NCBI GenBank assembly: GCA_021816455.1
Contig: JAKAXU010000009.1
Coordinates: forward strand, 21,995 to 85,994
From: Acidobacteriota bacterium
GTDB taxonomy: Bacteria; Acidobacteriota; Terriglobia; Terriglobales; Acidobacteriaceae
DNA length: 64,000 bases
Direction of reading: 5' to 3'
The notes below the pieces were generated by a model, which worked only from the letters and a program-made list of their open reading frames with translations, did no database searches and was not told the DNA's origin. Made by a program: the position numbers and the translations under genes. Positions 3,327 through 13,300 of this stretch are shown here, in pieces (the stretch's first letter is position 1; each line of letters starts with the position of its first letter).

Positions 3327-4013
3327 TCAGGCTTTCAGCAGATTGGTATAGATCGCCATCCCCGCCACGGCATCCACTCCCATAGCATCCAGCGCGTCAA
3401 TCTCGCTCTGACTGCGAATGCCACCGGCCACAATCAGTCTGCGCCGGGTGCACACGCGCAGCCGTTCGGCTGTCTCCAGCGGAAATCCCTGTAAAAGGCC
3501 CTCGCCATCGATGTGCGTGTAGAGATAGCCCTCCACGAAGGGATCCAGTTGCGTCATGGCTTCCTCAGCCGTCAATGCAATCGACACCGTCCAGCCTTTG
3601 ATCGCGATTCTTCCACCGCGCGAATCGATACCCGCCAGCACAAACTTCGCGTCAACGGCTGCGGCTATCTCCTGAGCGAACTCCGTACGCACCACGCCAC
3701 GGCCCTCTCGCTCCGCGAACAACGCCGAACCGAGAATCACCTGCCGCGCGCCCGCTTCCAGTCTGCGACGCGCAGCTTCCACCGTGCGGATGCCGCCGCC
3801 CACCTGCACAGGCAACCGTCGCGCAATCCGCTCCACCAGCGAGGTATTCTCGCCCTTGCACATGGCCGCATCCAGGTCGATCAACTGCACGCGCGGATAC
3901 GCTGCAAAGCGCTCAATCCAGTAATCGATATCGTCGGAGGCAACGCGAAGGCGCTCGCCCTGCTCCAGTTGAACAACACGACCGCCCATCAGATCAATCG
4001 AAGGAATCAGCAT
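3327..4013 (-). CDS. hisA: 1-(5-phosphoribosyl)-5-[(5-phosphoribosylamino)methylideneamino]imidazole-4-carboxamide isomerase
   Basis: [16 protein letters not shown] start; [14 protein letters not shown]; start overlaps hisF stop. Confidence 0.95.
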
Positions 4014-4786
4014 GGAATCCTCACCGGAATTTTCTGAGCGGCAAGCTGTTCTTTCAGCACGCGCGCGCTCGATACACCGAAGTGGAAGATGCTTGCCGCG
4101 AGCGCCGCATCCGCGCAACCAGCAGTGAACACCTCAGCGAAATGCTGCACACTGCCTGCTCCGCCGGAAGCGATCACGGGAATCTGCACCGCACGGCTGA
4201 CCGCCGCAGTCAGCTCACAATCGAAGCCCGCGCGTGTACCGTCGGCATCCATCGACGTCAGCAGAATCTCGCCCGCGCCGTGCTGCTCGGCATCGCGCGC
4301 CCACTCGATCACCGTCCGCCCGGCATCGCGCCGACCGCCGTGCGTGAAGACACGGGCATCTCGCACGGGATCCGCAGCCCCAACATTCCGCCTTGCATCG
4401 ATCGCAACCACGACGGCCTGCGCGCCATATTCTGCGCCAATCATCGTAATCAGTTCCGGATTCTGCAATGCCGCCGAATTCAGACTCACCTTATCCGCGC
4501 CCGCATCGAAGACCGCCGCTGCGTCCTCCAGCGTGCGAATGCCGCCGCCCACCGTGAACGGAATGAAAAGCTGCTGCGCCGCGCGCCGCACTGTTTCCAG
4601 CAGTGTTGCACGGCCTTCGTGCGTCGCCGTAATATCCAGCAGCACAATCTCATCGGCTCCGTCTTCAGCATGGCGATGCGCCAGTTCGGCAGGATCGCCG
4701 GCGTCGATCAGATTCACAAACTGAACGCCCTTCACCACACGTCCATTCCGCACATCCAGGCAAGCAATCACGCGTCGCGTCAGCAT
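4007..4786 (-). CDS. hisF: Imidazole glycerol phosphate synthase cyclase subunit
   Basis: [40 protein letters not shown]. Confidence 0.97.
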
Positions 4787-5382
4787 GCGGAAAACTCCAG
4801 AAAGTTACGCAAAATCTGCAACCCGGTTGCGCCGGATTTCTCCGGATGGAACTGCACGCCGCAGACGCGCTCGCGCTGACAAGCCGCCGCAAATGGGCCC
4901 ATATACTCCGTCGTGACAATTGTCTCTGTGCCCACAGGCGCGCGCCACGAGTGAGTGAAGTAGGCGAAGTCTCCGCTCGCCACACCCTTCAGCAGTGGCG
5001 TCGCTGCCAGTTCATTCAGTTGGTTCCAGCCCACGTGCGGCACTTTTTGCCCGTTCGCCGGAAAGCGTGAAACCGTCTGCTGAAAATATCCCAGTCCCGG
5101 ATGACCCGGCGCTTCCGTGCTGCCTGCATAGAGCCACTGCATTCCAACGCAGATGCCAAGAAATGGCACGCCCCGCGCGATTGCGCGACGAATGGCCTCG
5201 GCGAGTCCACCCTGCTCCAGGCGCGCAGTGGCGGCGAAGTGCCCTACACCCGGAAGCACCATGCTCGTTGCCCGCTCCATCGCTTCGGCCTGCGACGTAA
5301 CGAATACTTCCGTTCCCAGAAAATGCAACGCCTTCACCACCGAGGTCAGATTGCCCGCCTTGTAGTCAATCACGGTCAGCAT
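4780..5382 (-). CDS. hisH: Imidazole glycerol phosphate synthase glutamine amidotransferase subunit
   Basis: [28 protein letters not shown] glutaminase motifs. Confidence 0.97.
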
Positions 5383-5409: not shown

Positions 5410-6054
5410 TTACAGCAATCCCTTCGTACTCGGCAGCAGATCCGCCATCTGACGGTCGCGCGAACAAGCCCCGCGCATTGCGCGTGCAAAGGCCTTGAAG
5501 CATGCTTCAATTTTGTGATGATTGCTGCGGCCATACATCACCTTCACATGCACATTGGCCCGAGCGCCGCGCGCAAATCCTTCAAAAAAATCTGTCACAA
5601 GCTCCGTTTGCAGATCGCCGATCAGCCGCGTCCGCACCGCCGTATCCACAACAAACGCAGTGCGCCCGGAGAGGTCCACGGCGGCTACTGCAAGCGTCTC
5701 GTCCATAGGCATTACAAAATAGCCAGCGCGCAGGATTCCATGCTTGTCACCAAGCGCGCGATCGAACGCCTCGCCAAGCGCAATCCCCACATCTTCCACC
5801 GTGTGATGCTGGTCTACGTCCAAATCGCCTTTGCACATCAACTCCAGATCGAATCCACCGTGCCGCGCAAACGACTCCAGCATGTGATCGAAGAAGCGGA
5901 TCCCCGTACGCACGTTGTACTGTCCACGCCCTTCAATCGTCAGTCGCAGCACAATCGTCGTCTCCGTCGTATGCCGCATGATTTCTGACTGTCGCACCGT
6001 CACATCGTGCAACGGAAACTCCGGCTCACTTTCTGATGTTTTGAGTTGCTTCAT
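5410..6054 (-). CDS. hisB: Imidazoleglycerol-phosphate dehydratase (monofunctional)
   Basis: [17 protein letters not shown]; starts with a 4-bp ATGA overlap with the upstream fusion gene; no phosphatase domain. Confidence 0.96.
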
Positions 6055-8456
6055 CGTACTTCTCCATACGTAGATTGCATTTCGCTTTTCAATTCACGCA
6101 GCGCTTCTTCGATCGTCATCAAGGCCCTGCGCATCTGCGTGCGTGTGCCCACCGTGATGCGAACCAGTCCATCGCAGCCAGCATCCGCGGAACGATCGCG
6201 CACCAGCACACCCGCATCCTTCATTCGAGCGCAGAATTCTCTGTGTTCTCTGCCGATCTTCACCAGTACAAAGTTCGCCCGGGAAGGCCAGTAGCGCACG
6301 CCCATCCGTTCCAGCCCGGTGCAGAACTCTTCGCGCGCCGCGCGCACTTCACGCACATACGCATCCACGCCTTCGCTGTCCTCAAGCGCTGCGCGCAGCG
6401 CCACCAGTCCCGCAGCATTCACGCTGTACGGCGAAGCCATGCGCCGCACCCAGCGCAGGTTTTCTTCGCGGGAGGCGAGCAGTCCAAGCCGCAGCCCCGC
6501 CAGCCCATACGCTTTGGAAAAGGTACGCGCCACCACCAGGTTTGGGATCCTATCCAGCGCGTCGATCATCGTCTCCTCAGAAAACGGCACGTACGCCTCG
6601 TCCACCAGCAGAATGGCCTGTGGCGCAGCGGCGGCCAGTGCCAGCAACTGTTCCCGCGTCGCCGCTGTTCCCGTCGGGCTGTTTGGATTGGCAATGGCAA
6701 TCATCCGCGTTGCGGGCGTGATGGAGGCGAGCAGTCGCTCGGCGGGAAATGCAAACCCCGCGTCCGCTGGCACGTGCACCACCCTCGCGTCGGTGGCCGC
6801 TGCATAGATTTCGTACATCGTATACGTGGGCACCGGCAGCAGAAGTTCGTCGCCCGCATCGAGATACGTCTGGCACAGCAGGTGGATGGCCTCATCGACA
6901 CCGTTGGTGAGCAACACCTGTTCGGCTCGCAGTCTGAAGCGCTCCGCCACCCACGCCTCCACCGGAGTCCGCTCCGGATATCGCGTCCAATCCTCTGTGC
7001 TCAGCGCTGCCAGAGCCTCCTTCACACGCGGCGAACAGGCCACGGTGTTTTCGTTGAAGTCCAGCCGCAGCACGCTGCGATTGCCCAGCGGAGGATGATA
7101 TTCCGGCATGCTGCGCACCCGAGCGCGCGGCACCGGAAACACTTCGTTCACCTCCTCGCCTGCCGCCGTCGCTGCACGCACTCGCTCGCGAATCGCAGTC
7201 TCATGCCCGCGCAATCCCTCGGCCTCGGCCAACCGTGCTGCAAACGGACCAAGCCGAGCCAGTCCAGCGGCGGAATACTCCTGTACCGTCATCAGCTTCA
7301 GAAAGTCGTAAACGCTTAGCCCTCCGCGCTGCATCGCCTGTCCGCCTGTCGGCAGCGTGTGATTCGGCCCGGAGATGTAGTCGCCCATCGGCTGCGGCGA
7401 CCACGCGCCGACAAAGACGCTGCCCGCATTCCGCACCCACTCCACATCCGCTGCCGCATCCACCGTCAGATGTTCCGGAGCAAGTCGATTGACGATCGCT
7501 CGTGCTTCCTCCTGTGTCGCCGCGACGAAGATATATCCGTTGGCGGCAATAGCCTGCTGCGCCACAGAATTCTCTGCCGCCGCGCGCAACGTCTGCTCAC
7601 GCACGTCCTCCGCCAGCGCTGCCTGCGTGGTGACAAAAACAGCCTGCGCATCGGGATCGTGCTCGGCCTGCGCAACCAGATCGGCGGCGATGGCACGCGC
7701 ATCGCCTGTCTCGCTGGCAATCACGATCTCCGTTGGCCCGGCCTGCATATCGATGCCGCATCGCGACTGGCGCGCGACCAGTGCCTTAGCCGCCGTCACC
7801 CATCGATTTCCCGGCCCCACAATCTTGCTCACCGGAGCAATCGTCTCCGTACCCCAGGCAAGTGCTGCAACCGCCTGCGGGCCACCTACGCGATAAAACT
7901 CTGTCACACCCAGCAGATGCGCTGTCGCCAGCGTCTCCAGCGCCGGGTTTGGCGACACCACGACGATGCGCTCCACGCCCGTCACCTGCGCCGGAATCAC
8001 CGTCATCAGCATCGTCGAGGGTAGCGGATGACGGCCCCCTGGCACATAGCAGCCCACTGCTTCCAGCGCGCGGATTCGCTGGCCGGTACGCAACCCGCTG
8101 GCCTCCAGTTCTTCAAATTCCCGCGGCATCTGTCGCTCGGCAAAGCGCCGAATGCGCCCCACCGCAGCGCGCAAAACATCGCCCAGCGAAGCGTTGATCT
8201 GCTCCCATGCCTGTCGCATCGCTTCCGCCGAAACACGCAGAGTCGCCTCCGCCGGAAGTCGATCCAACTTCACTCCGTAACGTCGTAACGCCGCGTCTCC
8301 GCCTACCCGGACAGCGTTCACAATCTCCTGAACCTGAGGCAGCAGCTCGTCCAGAGCCGTGCTGCCTCGATTTTCCAGCCGCCGCAACGCCGCATCTCCC
8401 TGCCTGCGATCTTCTACGCATCCGGCTCGCATGTCGTACAGTTGCATCCTGGCCAT
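6051..8456 (-). CDS. hisD-hisC: Bifunctional histidinol dehydrogenase / histidinol-phosphate aminotransferase (HisD-HisC fusion)
   Basis: Single uninterrupted frame. HisD half: [54 protein letters not shown]. HisC half: [34 protein letters not shown]-lysine. Start taken at ATG 8456 (8447 also possible); the ORF track runs to 8591. Confidence 0.93.
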
Positions 8457-8473
8457 TCTCCCGTTCGTACCGT

Positions 8474-9349
8474 TTACAGCACCACTTTGTTCAGCGGATA
8501 CTCCACGATTCCCGTAGCTCCGCTTTCCTTGAGTCGTGGCACCACGTCCCTCACCGCAGACTCCTCCAGGATCGTGTTCACCGCAACCCACTCCGGATTG
8601 CTCTGCTCGGAGATCGTCGGCGAGTTCAGCGCCGGCAGGACCGCAAGCACACGCTCCAGATCCGAGCGACGCACATTCAGCATCATGCCCACCTGTGACT
8701 GCGCGTTAATCGCCGCGCACAGCATCAGCGCGAGGGATTCCAGCTTGCGCCGCTTCCATGCGTCGTCGCATGTCGCCTGGCTTGCAATCAGGTGCGTCTC
8801 GCTCTCCATCACCGTATCGATGATCGCCAGTCGATTCGCGCGCAGGCTGCTTCCTGTCTCGGTCACCTCCACGATGGCGTCGGCAAGCATCGGCGGCTTC
8901 ACCTCCGTTGCTCCCCAACTGAACTCGACCTTCACGGAAACACCCTTCTTCGCAAAGTAACGCCGCGTGACCTCCACCAGCTCGGTCGCGACAATCTTTC
9001 CTTCCAGGTCTTCCGCGCGCGTGATCCCAGACCCCTCCGGAACCGCCAGCACCCAGCGCACCTTTCGCCTGCTCTGCTTGGCATAGGTCAGTGATGCGAT
9101 GCTGGTCAGCGTCAAACCGCTCTCCACCACCCAGTCGATCCCGGTCAACCCCGCATCCAGCGCGCCGTGATCCACATACCGCGCCATCTCCTGCGCGCGA
9201 ATCAGCATGCACTCGATCTCCGGATCATCGATCGAAGGAAAGTACGAGCGACCGTCGGTATAGATATTCCAGCCCGCGCGCCGGAACAGCGCAATCGTAG
9301 CATCCTGCAAACTTCCCTTCGGAATTCCCAGCCGCAGTTTAGCGGGCAT
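8474..9349 (-). CDS. hisG: ATP phosphoribosyltransferase, long form
   Basis: [20 protein letters not shown]-terminal regulatory-type region [12 protein letters not shown]...[12 protein letters not shown]. Confidence 0.95.
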
Positions 9350-9704
9350 TTGCCACCTCCGCATTCTCTGCCTCAGCAACAGGAATCGCCTTCGTGAAGC
9401 ACGATACGGTTCCCTCGTGGCAGACCAGACCGTCGCCCTCCACTTCCACTTGAAAGACAATTGCGTCGTTGTCGCAATCGGTCGCCGCGGTCACGATCCG
9501 TAGCCGATTGCCGCTGGACTCGCCCTTCATCCACAGCTTCTGCCGCGTCCTGCTCCAGAACGTCACATAGCCCGATTGCAGGCTCATCGCATAGCTTGTT
9601 TCGTTCAGAAAACCAAGCATCAGTACTTCTCCGGTTCGAGCGTCCTGCACGATTCCCGGAATCAGCCCGTCCATCTTGTTGAAATCAATCTCAGGGTTCG
9701 TCAT
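9339..9704 (-). CDS. hisI: Phosphoribosyl-AMP cyclohydrolase
   Basis: [44 protein letters not shown]; no PRA-PH (HisE) domain; AAGGA SD upstream of ATG 9704. Confidence 0.95.
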
Positions 9705-9760
9705 TTTTTTCCTTTTTGGTCTCACTTTTTCAGATGCATGATCGCGTATCCATGCGGGTT

Positions 9761-9794
9761 AAAAAATAAAGCCCGCCGATTGGCTTCGGCGGGC
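9761..9794 (-). terminator. his attenuator terminator
   Basis: Minus strand GCCCGCCGA-AGCCAA-TCGGCGGGC (9-bp perfect stem) followed by TTTATTTTTT, 57 nt before the hisI start codon. Confidence 0.9.
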
Positions 9795-9828
9795 AGTCCA
9801 GAGGAGGATATTTTACTGTCTATATACC

Positions 9829-9906
9829 TCAGCTAAGATCATGACGTCCCGCCAACATGAAATGTCCATGCGTATGGTGGGGATCAGGATGGAAGCTGCG
9901 ACTCAT
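9829..9906 (-). CDS. hisL: his operon leader peptide MSRSFHPDPHHTHGHFMLAGRHDLS* (6 His in 25 codons)
   Basis: Read directly from the reverse complement; His codons at 9889-9891, 9877-9879, 9874-9876, 9868-9870, 9862-9864, 9841-9843; located between promoter and attenuator. Confidence 0.85.
   Translation of the reverse strand: MSRSFHPDPHHTHGHFMLAGRHDLS
9848..9855 (-). promoter_or_regulatory. Putative antiterminator arm (UUGGCGGG) competing with terminator 5' arm (CCCGCCGA, 9793-9786)
   Basis: 8 pairs including one G.U; lies inside the leader ORF, immediately after the His cluster. Confidence 0.75.
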
Positions 9907-9914
9907 CTTTTGTG

Positions 9915-9944
9915 AAGATAAGCAAACTGTATTCTTCTTGTCAA
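9915..9944 (-). promoter_or_regulatory. Putative sigma70-type promoter for the his leader
   Basis: TTGACA (9944-9939), 18-nt spacer, TATCTT (9920-9915); the leader ATG begins 9 nt after the -10. Confidence 0.7.
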
Positions 9945-10007
9945 ATATATTTTTCTAAAATCATAGACTGATTTTAGTGAAAACATTTATGAAAAGGATG
10001 GCTTTTG

Positions 10008-10289
10008 GTGAAATCCACGGCAACCTCCTTCATTGCCCTGCTTCTTCTGGCGGCAATTTCTCTTCCGCACTCTCTTTCCGCCAATGCAAATTTGCCGGTC
10101 GATATCAACTCCGCCAGCCTCTCCGCACTCCTCCGGATCGACGGCATGACGGTTGTCTGGGCGCAGCGCATCGTCCGCTTTCGGCCCTATTCTGCAAAGT
10201 CGGATCTGGTCCAGCGCGGCATCGTTTCCCGGGAGGAATACCAGCGCATTGAGAATCGCATCGTCGCGCACCGGCTTCATCGTCCATGA
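10008..10289 (+). CDS. Small secreted helix-hairpin-helix (ComEA-like) protein
   Basis: Signal peptide ATSFIALLLLAAISLPHSLSA; DINSASLSALLRIDGMTVVWAQRIVRFRPY; GTG (10008) or TTG (10005) start with AAGGA upstream. Confidence 0.65.
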   Translation: MKSTATSFIALLLLAAISLPHSLSANANLPVDINSASLSALLRIDGMTVVWAQRIVRFRPYSAKSDLVQRGIVSREEYQRIENRIVAHRLHRP

Positions 10290-10296
10290 AGCCGGT
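10270..10296 (+). terminator. Hairpin overlapping the stop codon of the HhH gene
   Basis: ACCGGCTTCAT-CGTCC-ATGAAGCCGGT 11-bp perfect stem; no U tract. Confidence 0.4.
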
Positions 10297-10364
10297 CCGG
10301 AGCAGGGACACAAGGAAACAGGGTGCCGAATGGCGCCCCGCAGCATGCTCTGTTTTCCGCCGCT

Positions 10365-13300
10365 TCAGTGTGTCTGCAGGACCGGATCTTTCGCTGGCCG
10401 CAAACGGGCGAGCAGGCCGCTGAGCGTGACGTAGAGCACGGGGATGAAGATCAGGTTCAGGATCGTTGAAACCAGCATTCCTCCCACGATCGTCGTGCCC
10501 ACCGAGTGTCGTCCCAGCGCTCCTGCGCCCGTCGCAAAGACCAGCGGCAGAATGCCCAGGATGAAGGCGAAGGAGGTCATGAGAATAGGCCGTAGCCTCA
10601 GCTCCGCGGCTTCAATTGCAGCCTCGGCGATGCTCCGTCCTTTTTCGCGGAGCTGCTCGGCAAACTCCACAATCAGAATCGCGTTCTTCGCCGAGAGACC
10701 AATCAGCATCACCAGACCGATCTGGCAGTAGACATCGTCGGAAAGTCCCCGCGCCGCCACCGCGCCCAGCGCGCCCAGCACGGCCATGGGCACCGCCAGC
10801 AGGATGATAAACGGCAGCGCAAAGCTCTCATACTGCGCAGCCAGCGTCAGGTAGACGACAATCAGACCCAGTGCGAAGATCAGCACCGCCTTGCCGCTGG
10901 ATTCAATCTCTTCCAGCGTCAGTCCCGTCCACGAGAAGGTCATTCCAGGCATCATCGCGCGGCGCGCCAATGACTCCATCGCGGCAATGCCTTCGCTGGA
11001 ACTTTTGCCCGGCGCGGCCGATCCGTCAATCTCCACCGAACGGAAGAGATTGTAGTGGCTGATCACCTGCGGTCCGGAGGTGTTATCGATCATCACCAGA
11101 TTATCCAGCGGAATCATCTGGTTCGTTGTGTCCGAGCGGACATAGAACGAGTGGAGATCGCCGACCGTCATGCGAAATGGCTGGTCTGCCTGCACATACA
11201 CACGATACGTGCGATTGTTGTAATCGAAGTCATTCACATACTCCGATCCCATGAAGACATTCAATGTCGTCGCAATCTGCGTGAAGGAAACGCCCAGCGC
11301 CTTTGCCTTGTCGCGGTCCACACGCACCAGCAGTTGCGGGTCGCTGGCGGAGAAGTTTGTGAACAGTCCTGTCAGCCCCAGCTTCTGATCCTGGCGGCTG
11401 ATTCCGATCATCCGATGCGCAACCTGGTCCATGTCCGCCAGCGTATTCTGGCCCAGATCCTGCAATTCAAACTGGAATCCGCCAAACGATCCGATGCCCT
11501 GCACCGCAGGCGGCTGAAAGAGCGCCACCGTTCCACCCGGCACCATGAAGAGCTTCGGAGCCAGCGCAGCCACAATATCCGCCGCCGAATGGCCCTTGGC
11601 GCGCCGCTGGTCGGCTGGCTTAAGCGCGGCAAAGATCATGCCCGCGTTAGGCGAACTGCCGGTCAGCGAAAATCCCGAGACGGCAAAGGCTCCGACGATA
11701 TCCGGGTCCGTCGCCAGCACGCGCTGGGCGCGATCCGAGATCGCCGTGGTGTCGCTCAGCGAGGCTCCTGGAGGCGCCTGCACAATCACCATCAGCATTC
11801 CCTGGTCTTCCTGCGGAATGAAACCGGTCGGCACGTGCAGATACATCCATCCGGTTGCTGCGAGTCCAGCGAAGAAGACGATCACCAGCAAATATCGCAG
11901 CCGCAATGCGATGTGAATCAGCCCGGCATAGGTCCGCGAAATCCAACGGATAAAGCCGTCGATCCCACGGGCAGCCGCGGACCACGCGCGGGAAATCGCC
12001 GAAACGCGCAGAAAATCCAGTTGTTGGTATTTGGCTTCTTCGCCGCGCAGAAACAGCGCCGCCAAAGCCGGCGAAAGCGTCAGTGCGTTCAGCGCGGAGA
12101 TCGCAATGGAAAAGGCGATCGTCAGCGAAAACTGCCGATACAGAATGCCCGTAGTACCCGGAAAGAATGAAACCGGCACGAAGACCGCGATCAGTACCAG
12201 AGACGTCGCAATCACCGCGCTCGTCACCTCGCTCATCGCCACCGAAGTCGCATCGTGCGGGTCGGAGTGCTCGGCCGAGATGTGGCGCTGCACGTTTTCG
12301 ATCACCACGATCGCATCGTCCACCACCAGACCTGTGGCAAGCGTGATGCCAAAGAGCGTCAGTGAGTTGATCGAGAATCCGAAGGCTTTGATGAATGCGA
12401 AAGTTCCAATCAGCGAAACCGGAATCGTCACTGCGGGAATGATGGTCGCGCGCCAGTCCAGCAGGAAGAGAAAGATCACCACGATCACGATCACGATGGC
12501 TTCGGCCAGCGTGACCAGCACCTCATGAATCGAGTCTCCGACGATCGTCGTCGAGTCAAACGCGACCGCGTACTCCAGACCCGGAGGAAAATGCGCCGAA
12601 AGCTGCTTCAGTACGGCCTTGGCTTCTCGATCCACCTCTAGTGCGTTGGCATTGGACAACTGCTGCACACCGATGCCGACCGCCGCCTGCCCCTGGTATT
12701 TCAGGTTCGAGCTGTAGTCCTCCGCGCCAAGCACGGCATGACCCACATCGCGCAGATAGATCAACCCGCTCGGACTGCTCTTGACAATGATGTTGTCGAA
12801 CTGCTGCGGATCGCTCAGTCGCCCCTGTACGCGCACCGCCAGCTGGTATGCCTGACGGTCATCCGACGGCGGCTGCCCGAGCTGCCCTGCAGGCACCTCC
12901 ACGTTCTGCTCTGCCAGCGCATCCACCACATCGGTTGCGGTCAGCCCATGCGTCGCCATCTCGTTGGGATCGAGCCAGACACGCATCGCATACTTGCGCT
13001 CGCCGAAGATCTGCACATTGCCCACGCCCGGAACCCTCTTCAGCGCATCGGCAACATAGACGTCCAGATAGTTGGAAATGAACTCGTTGGAATACCGGTT
13101 GTCGGGCGTAAAGAATCCCGCACCAAAGACGAAGTTGCTGTTCGCCTTGGTGATCGTAATGCCCGCGGAATTCACCGCCGCCGGCAGTCGCCCGCTCACG
13201 CTAGCCACGCGATTCTGCACGTCCACCGCAGCAATCGAAAGGTCGTAGCCGGTCTGGAAGGTCACCGTGATCGTACTCACGCCGGAGTTGGTGCTGGCCG

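What the first reader, a model, noticed from the sequence alone, without database searches (positions are those of the whole stretch)
9761..9944. Complete His-codon transcription attenuator in front of the his operon
On the minus strand, in order: TTGACA-N18-TATCTT, then ATG AGT CGC AGC TTC CAT CCT GAT CCC CAC CAT ACG CAT GGA CAT TTC ATG TTG GCG GGA CGT CAT GAT CTT AGC TGA (6 His in 25 codons, four of them within six codons). This is followed by a 9-bp GC stem with a 6-nt loop and TTTATTTTTT, ending about 57 nt before the hisI ATG. The segment UUGGCGGG (9855-9848), inside the leader ORF and just past the His cluster, can pair with CCCGCCGA (9793-9786), which is the 5' arm of the terminator. 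That gives the mutually exclusive antiterminator/terminator pair expected of ribosome-mediated attenuation. Classical leader-peptide his attenuation is established in enteric and other gammaproteobacteria, and T-boxes serve this role in Firmicutes. I am not aware of a characterised case in Acidobacteria; that novelty statement is from memory and not searched.
Basis: partly seen in the sequence, partly recalled or inferred. Interest (0 to 1): 0.93.

Follow-up and report, generated by a model that had tools for sequence, protein, structure and literature searches.

The report
Histidine attenuator of Acidobacteria his operon
A short histidine-rich reading frame that begins almost at the transcription start, followed by a switchable terminator hairpin, sits in front of the histidine genes of this soil bacterium and of every relative in its family that could be checked, so a well-known starvation sensor (ribosome-mediated attenuation) appears to run this pathway in a phylum where I found no published case.

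Summary
In the window's family, 107 of 108 genomes carry a His-rich leader ORF upstream of hisI; the exception is cut off by a contig end. Shuffled sequences gave 5 of 2160. A sigma-70-type promoter lies within 55 nt of the leader start in 104 of 107, and a strong terminator follows in 102 of 107. His codons vary mostly at the wobble base, so translation is selected. The next three codons vary least at the wobble base and pair with the 5' arm of the terminator, so that stretch is constrained as RNA: the antiterminator. A stall model of the window element gives antiterminator pairing (P about 0.9) with the first His codons in the A site. The element also occurs in other families of the class and a few outside it. 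Rfam's His_leader does not match. No acidobacterial case was found in the open literature; one subscription survey could not be read. No expression data exist. Verdict: real; a new variant of a known kind.

The parts
9939..9944 (-). -35 hexamer TTGACA
   Evidence: TTGAC conserved at this place in 104/107 family members
9915..9920 (-). -10 hexamer TATCTT (spacer 18)
   Evidence: TANNNT conserved
9906..9909 (-). predicted transcription start region: 0-3 nt before the leader ATG, i.e. leaderless or nearly so
   Evidence: inferred from the -10 position; the ATG lies 6-12 nt after the -10 box in 88/104 relatives and an SD-like motif is seen in 4.7%
9829..9906 (-). leader ORF, 25 codons, MSRSFHPDPHHTHGHFMLAGRHDLS
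   Evidence: conserved as His-rich ORF in 107/107 readable family members
9862..9879 (-). regulatory His codons 10, 11, 13, 15 (further His codons: 6 at 9891-9889, 22 at 9843-9841)
   Evidence: sequence; stall simulation
9830..9898 (-). segment 1:2 hairpin that ties up the antiterminator arm when no ribosome is present
   Evidence: fold of -26.3 kcal/mol, z -2.5; fold only, covariation not tested
9848..9855 (-). segment 2, antiterminator 5' arm UUGGCGGG (extended by GUC 9845-9843)
   Evidence: pairs with 9793-9786; matching codons are conserved at the wobble base in the family
9804..9830 (-). small hairpin between leader stop and terminator; stays folded inside the antiterminator loop
   Evidence: role unknown
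9786..9793 (-). segment 3, CCCGCCGA: shared 3' arm of the antiterminator and 5' arm of the terminator
9771..9794 (-). terminator hairpin, 9 bp, 6-nt loop (segment 3:4)
   Evidence: -18.8 kcal/mol, z -4.8; conserved
9761..9770 (-). U-tract UUUAUUUUUU
9339..9704 (-). hisI, first gene of the operon
8474..9349 (-). hisG
   Evidence: start codon inferred from where the model match begins
6051..8591 (-). hisD and hisC in one open reading frame
   Evidence: TIGR00069 at residues 87-470, TIGR01141 at 489-829
5410..6054 (-). hisB
4780..5382 (-). hisH
4007..4786 (-). hisF
3327..4118 (-). hisA (the true start lies inside this ORF)

Best explanation
It is a ribosome-mediated transcription attenuator of the his operon with an (almost) leaderless leader ORF. 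RNA polymerase starts 0-3 nt before the leader AUG and a ribosome loads on the 5' end. If His-tRNA is scarce, the ribosome stalls on the early His codons. It then covers segment 1 and leaves segment 2 (9855-9848) free to pair with segment 3 (9793-9786) before segment 4 is made; the terminator cannot form and hisI-hisG-hisDC-hisB-hisH-hisF-hisA are transcribed. If His-tRNA is plentiful, the ribosome runs over segment 2 to the stop codon; segment 3 pairs with segment 4 and transcription ends in the U-tract at 9770-9761. With no ribosome, segment 1 holds segment 2 and the terminator forms. Shown here by sequence, conservation and folding: promoter, ORF, His codons, both alternative helices. Inferred: transcription start, leaderless initiation, stalling, termination and the physiological response.
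For: Conservation: a His-cluster ORF upstream of hisI in 107/108 family genomes, the last being a truncated contig; shuffles 5/2160, opposite strand 0/108. A terminator 20-50 nt after the leader stop: 102/107 at score >=28 versus 2/535 shuffled. Promoter TTGAC...TANNNT within 55 nt of the leader start: 104/107 versus 1/1070 shuffled. Translation is selected: His columns differ by codon position 0.14/0.21/0.46. RNA-level selection at segment 2: 0.29/0.31/0.19 by codon position; Ser is TCR in 62/65 versus 30/183 elsewhere in the leaders (p 2e-31); Ala is GCG in 88/90 versus 73/119 (p 3e-11). Frame-shifted leaders (L015, L025, L078) change the peptide but keep GYCGGCGGA. Segment 2 is the best or joint best partner of segment 3 among about 91 possible 9-mers in 93/105 leaders, and own pairs beat all 5000 permutations. 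Stall model: window P(2:3) 0.88-0.96 with His6, His10, His11 or His13 in the A site and 0 from codon 16 on (RNA upstream of the ribosome was masked too); family 99% above 0.5 versus 36% with shuffled linker. The strand and the divergent upstream gene exclude a terminator of that gene.
Against: No transcript, ribosome or expression data. Tree-aware covariation of segment 2:3 is thin: two independent compensatory C-G to U-A changes on 45 tips, because most of the helix is invariant; the permutation effect is small in size (7.24 versus 7.08 pairs of 9), and permutations ignore relatedness. In the set of 36 loci mostly from outside the family, the 2:3 helix is clearly better than shuffles (z below -2) in only 10. 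In the static model 3:4 is favoured over 2:3 in the complete transcript, so the switch depends on order of synthesis. If only the footprint of a ribosome at the stop codon is masked, segment 2 lies just behind it and the model still allows some 2:3 pairing (0.35 in the window); the replete state relies on the ribosome physically separating segments 2 and 3. Without a ribosome the model also leaves much 2:3 pairing in many relatives (mean 0.53), so the no-translation state is not clear-cut.
Confidence: 0.93

Rival explanations
1. The leader ORF encodes a functional small His-rich (for example metal-binding) peptide that happens to precede hisI; the hairpin is an ordinary terminator of that small gene.
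For: The ORF is conserved, with a conserved promoter of its own and a terminator after it. A leader peptide with a trans role is known for trpL of Sinorhizobium meliloti (PMC7298713).
Against: A terminator between promoter and hisI with no second promoter evident would leave the operon off. The peptide after the His run changes freely and even shifts frame while the RNA arm stays. It is tied to his operons and not found where hisI does not lead the operon. No Pfam match.
Confidence: 0.03
2. A different sensor works here: a T-box, or a metabolite or protein that binds the leader RNA, and the His-rich ORF is incidental.
For: Histidine T-boxes and the HisR repressor regulate his genes in Gram-positive bacteria (PMC9413887).
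Against: No T-box or other Rfam family overlaps the element at gathering score; permissive E-values give only chance matches. The His codons are conserved at the amino-acid level while their wobble bases vary.
Confidence: 0.02
3. Ribosome-dependent control acts mainly on translation or on Rho rather than on the intrinsic terminator.
For: Such variants of attenuators exist (PMC9413887).
Against: The hairpin is followed by TTTATTTTTT and is conserved with a T-run. The hairpin ends 66 nt before hisI and does not overlap its start.
Confidence: 0.02

Closest known systems
his operon attenuator of Escherichia coli and Salmonella (Rfam RF00514 His_leader)
   Same: His-rich leader ORF, mutually exclusive antiterminator and intrinsic terminator, in front of the his operon.
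   Different: RF00514 does not match here. Leader is 25 codons with dispersed His codons, no Shine-Dalgarno, ATG almost at the transcription start. Three alternative helices (1:2, 2:3, 3:4) from four segments instead of the six-segment enteric leader (the latter from memory). First gene is hisI, not hisG.
Predicted His-leader attenuators of some Firmicutes (B. cereus group, Peptostreptococcaceae, Erysipelotrichales; PMC9413887)
   Same: Leader peptide with His codons, terminator and antiterminator, outside Proteobacteria, not matched by RF00514.
   Different: Different phylum and scattered small groups there; here the element was found in every readable member of a whole family and through much of a class. 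The passages of the paper that I read do not describe a leaderless start.
trpL attenuator of Sinorhizobium meliloti (rnTrpL/peTrpL)
   Different: Senses tryptophan, alphaproteobacterium, unrelated sequence.

Membership tests
Ribosome-mediated (leader-peptide) transcription attenuators | short translated ORF rich in codons of the end-product amino acid, upstream of its biosynthesis operon | tested here: met
   (translation inferred from codon-position pattern)
Ribosome-mediated (leader-peptide) transcription attenuators | intrinsic terminator between leader ORF and first gene | tested here: met
Ribosome-mediated (leader-peptide) transcription attenuators | mutually exclusive antiterminator that forms when the ribosome stalls at the regulatory codons | tested here: met
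   by sequence and folding model only; covariation modest
Ribosome-mediated (leader-peptide) transcription attenuators | readthrough rises on starvation for the amino acid | not testable with these tools
   needs term-seq or reporter assays
Rfam RF00514 His_leader (enteric his attenuator) | match to the covariance model at gathering score | tested here: not met
   no match in the own genome at E<=1, none of 12 genomes over the cut-off, while one control genome was over it
T-box leaders | match to a T-box covariance model | tested here: not met
   searches list no T-box
Leaderless leader mRNAs (trpL-like) | transcription starts at or within a few nt of the leader AUG | tested here: inconclusive
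   promoter position says so in 88/104 relatives and in the window; no start-site mapping

The most novel reading that the evidence does not exclude
Acidobacteriota carry their own class of his attenuator, independent in origin from the proteobacterial one, in which sensing is done on a leaderless mRNA: the ribosome must load on a 5'-terminal AUG as RNA polymerase leaves the promoter, so the switch would read both His-tRNA charging and the cell's capacity for leaderless initiation.
Probability: 0.55. Interest if true: 0.65.

Novelty: new variant of a known kind. Interest (0 to 1): 0.55.

Why it matters
Leader-peptide his attenuation has been described for Proteobacteria and, by prediction, a few Firmicutes. 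Here it appears in every readable genome of an abundant soil family and through much of its class, with a near-leaderless leader. That extends the classical mechanism to a poorly studied phylum, gives over a hundred natural variants for studying how stalling, segment spacing and leaderless initiation combine, and offers a candidate histidine-responsive switch for genetics in Acidobacteria. It also suggests a function for some of the attenuators that an earlier survey counted in Acidobacteria with almost no functions assigned (PMC2965389).

Tried and rejected
Rfam at gathering and permissive thresholds: nothing at the locus except chance matches. RF00514 over whole genomes: no match over the cut-off. 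Other amino-acid operons: the same promoter-plus-leader scan directly upstream of trpE, ilvB and leuA in about 18-19 relatives each found nothing, and the ilv/leu cluster of the own genome shows none; other first genes were not tested. Lineages of the class where hisI is not the first gene (families f4, f9, f10 of the search) lack a leader within 4 kb of hisG. An automatic choice of the antiterminator arm by best complementarity was biased and mis-set the window itself, so fixed codon columns were used.

Full report
OBSERVATION. The minus strand of the window reads, in order, TTGACA (9944-9939), 18 nt, TATCTT (9920-9915), an ORF from ATG 9906 to TGA 9829 (MSRSFHPDPHHTHGHFMLAGRHDLS), a 9-bp, 6-nt-loop hairpin (9794-9771) with TTTATTTTTT, and hisI from 9704. 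The promoter-like site is the only one found in 9300-10400 (0.7 expected by chance), so on its own it would be weak evidence; its conservation decides. The genes behind it are hisI, hisG, hisD and hisC in one frame, hisB, hisH, hisF and hisA (hisA below its curated cut-off but clearly of the family). The gene upstream (10005-10289) is divergent, so a minus-strand terminator cannot belong to it.

CONSERVATION IN THE FAMILY. HisI was found in 114 of 151 genomes drawn from the window's family. I took the DNA upstream of hisI from 108 of them. 107 have an ORF with at least five His codons in 13 within 400 bp; the remaining one (L061) has only about 60 nt before the contig ends. Shuffled sequences gave 5 of 2160 and the opposite strand 0 of 108. 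Typical relatives read like MQIHLHHRHHHHHGTSVSADLSGLRN, so the window copy, with its dispersed His codons, is one of the least His-dense. A terminator with the core GCCCGC[CT]G...GCGGGC and a T-run follows, mostly 20-50 nt after the leader stop; 102 of 107 reach a score seen in 2 of 535 shuffles. Named relatives place the family at or near Acidobacteriaceae.

NEAR-LEADERLESS START. A strict TTGAC, 17-20 nt, TANNNT lies within 55 nt of the leader start in 104 of 107 and in 1 of 1070 shuffles. The distance from the -10 hexamer to the ATG peaks at 8-10 nt, with 88 of 104 between 6 and 12. An SD-like motif precedes 4.7% of the leader starts against 42% in the region just before hisI, the latter measured approximately. 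Since transcription usually starts about 7 nt after the -10 hexamer (established knowledge), the leader mRNA has 0 to a few nt before its AUG. In the window this puts the start at 9909-9906. Leaderless genes were estimated at about 13% on average in three acidobacterial genomes (PMC3160421), and trpL of S. meliloti is a leaderless leader ORF (PMC7298713), so the idea has precedent; start-site mapping is still needed.

TRANSLATION AND RNA-LEVEL CONSTRAINT. Pairwise differences at codon positions 1, 2, 3 are 0.14, 0.21, 0.46 in the His columns, as expected if His codons are kept but the wobble base is free. In the three codons that hold segment 2 (usually V-S-A, DNA G TCG GCG GA) they are 0.29, 0.31, 0.19, the reverse. 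Ser there is TCG or TCA in 62 of 65 against 30 of 183 elsewhere in the leaders (p 2e-31) and Ala is GCG in 88 of 90 against 73 of 119 (p 3e-11). In L015, L025 and L078 the reading frame after the His run is shifted, so the peptide differs, yet the same RNA arm is present. This is strong evidence that segment 2 is an RNA element inside a translated ORF.

ANTITERMINATOR. With segment 2 fixed by the peptide alignment and segment 3 by the terminator, the two form on average 7.24 of 9 standard pairs; none of 5000 permutations among species reaches this (mean 7.08), and segment 2 is the best or joint best partner of segment 3 among about 91 possible 9-mers in 93 of 105 leaders. The permutation effect is small because the arms are similar in all species, and permutation ignores relatedness. 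On a tree of 45 members only two independent compensatory changes were found for 2:3. In a set of 36 loci, nearly all from outside the family, the helix is clearly better than shuffles in 10. The antiterminator therefore rests more on codon-level constraint than on covariation.

STALL MODEL. For the window, masking RNA up to the leading edge of a ribosome with His6, His10, His11 or His13 in the A site gives 2:3 pairing of 0.88-0.96 in the transcript before segment 4 is made; from codon 16 on it is 0. In the family, 99% of leaders exceed 0.5 when stalled at the first His of the cluster, against 36% with a shuffled linker. In the complete transcript 3:4 wins, so the switch must be kinetic. Free RNA folds the leader into a 1:2 hairpin (-26.3 kcal/mol, z -2.5), the antiterminator (-22.9) and the terminator (-18.8, z -4.8). 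If only the footprint of a ribosome at the stop codon is masked, segment 2 lies just behind it and the model leaves it partly free (0.35 in the window); this is the weakest step.

DISTRIBUTION. All 30 loci examined from the order have the leader, including eight from a second family. In other families of the class it is present in the loci where hisI begins the operon and enough upstream DNA is held: eight at the strict threshold and four more with 3-4 His codons. In the loci read in full where it is missing, hisI follows another his gene, and no leader was found within 4 kb of hisG in those lineages. Outside the class it is found before hisI in three of 30 loci, upstream of hisG and a preceding gene in two related ones, and in MAGs labelled Bryobacterales and Vicinamibacterales. 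Three MAGs with other labels (Cyanobacteria, Ferrithrix, Armatimonadetes) also carry it, but those labels were not verified.

COMPARISON. It works like the enteric his attenuator but is not a member of Rfam RF00514. Firmicutes his attenuators have been predicted (PMC9413887), so presence outside Proteobacteria is not by itself new. An earlier survey counted attenuators in Acidobacteria with almost no functions assigned (PMC2965389). Searches of the open-access library found no acidobacterial his attenuator. Lopatovskaya et al. 2010 could not be read and may contain one.

VERDICT. The element is real, and ribosome-mediated attenuation is the best explanation by a wide margin. It is a new variant of a known kind: new phylum as far as I could find, family-wide, near-leaderless. 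Expression evidence is missing.

Noticed in passing
window 6051-8591 (minus): hisD and hisC form one uninterrupted ORF (846 aa). The same fusion is in a same-genus relative (L409), while five other relatives (L410-L414) have two adjacent ORFs that overlap by a few bases.
   Followed up: partly
window 9804-9830 (minus): A small hairpin between leader stop and terminator is nearly identical in the same-genus relative L003 although the leader ORF has diverged; possibly a pause or spacer element.
   Followed up: no
L002, L003, L200 leaders: The window and close relatives have dispersed His codons and altered peptides (MSRSYHHDLHHLHELHACGQP, MSLGFHPDLHHLHGLHACGQS), unlike the long His runs elsewhere in the family; in L003 the arm appears to be kept in a shifted register (GCGGGC with GCCCGC).
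   Followed up: partly
L031:165-346 and L031:517-703 (minus): Two tandem cobalamin riboswitches in the neighbourhood of hisI in one relative.
   Followed up: no
L224, L204, L212: MAGs labelled Armatimonadetes, Cyanobacteria and Ferrithrix also carry a His-rich leader and terminator before hisI; either the labels are wrong or the element is in other phyla.
   Followed up: no
window 10005-10289 (plus): The divergent neighbour encodes a 94-aa protein with a helix-hairpin-helix motif (PF12836); its promoter must share the 300-bp intergenic region.
   Followed up: no
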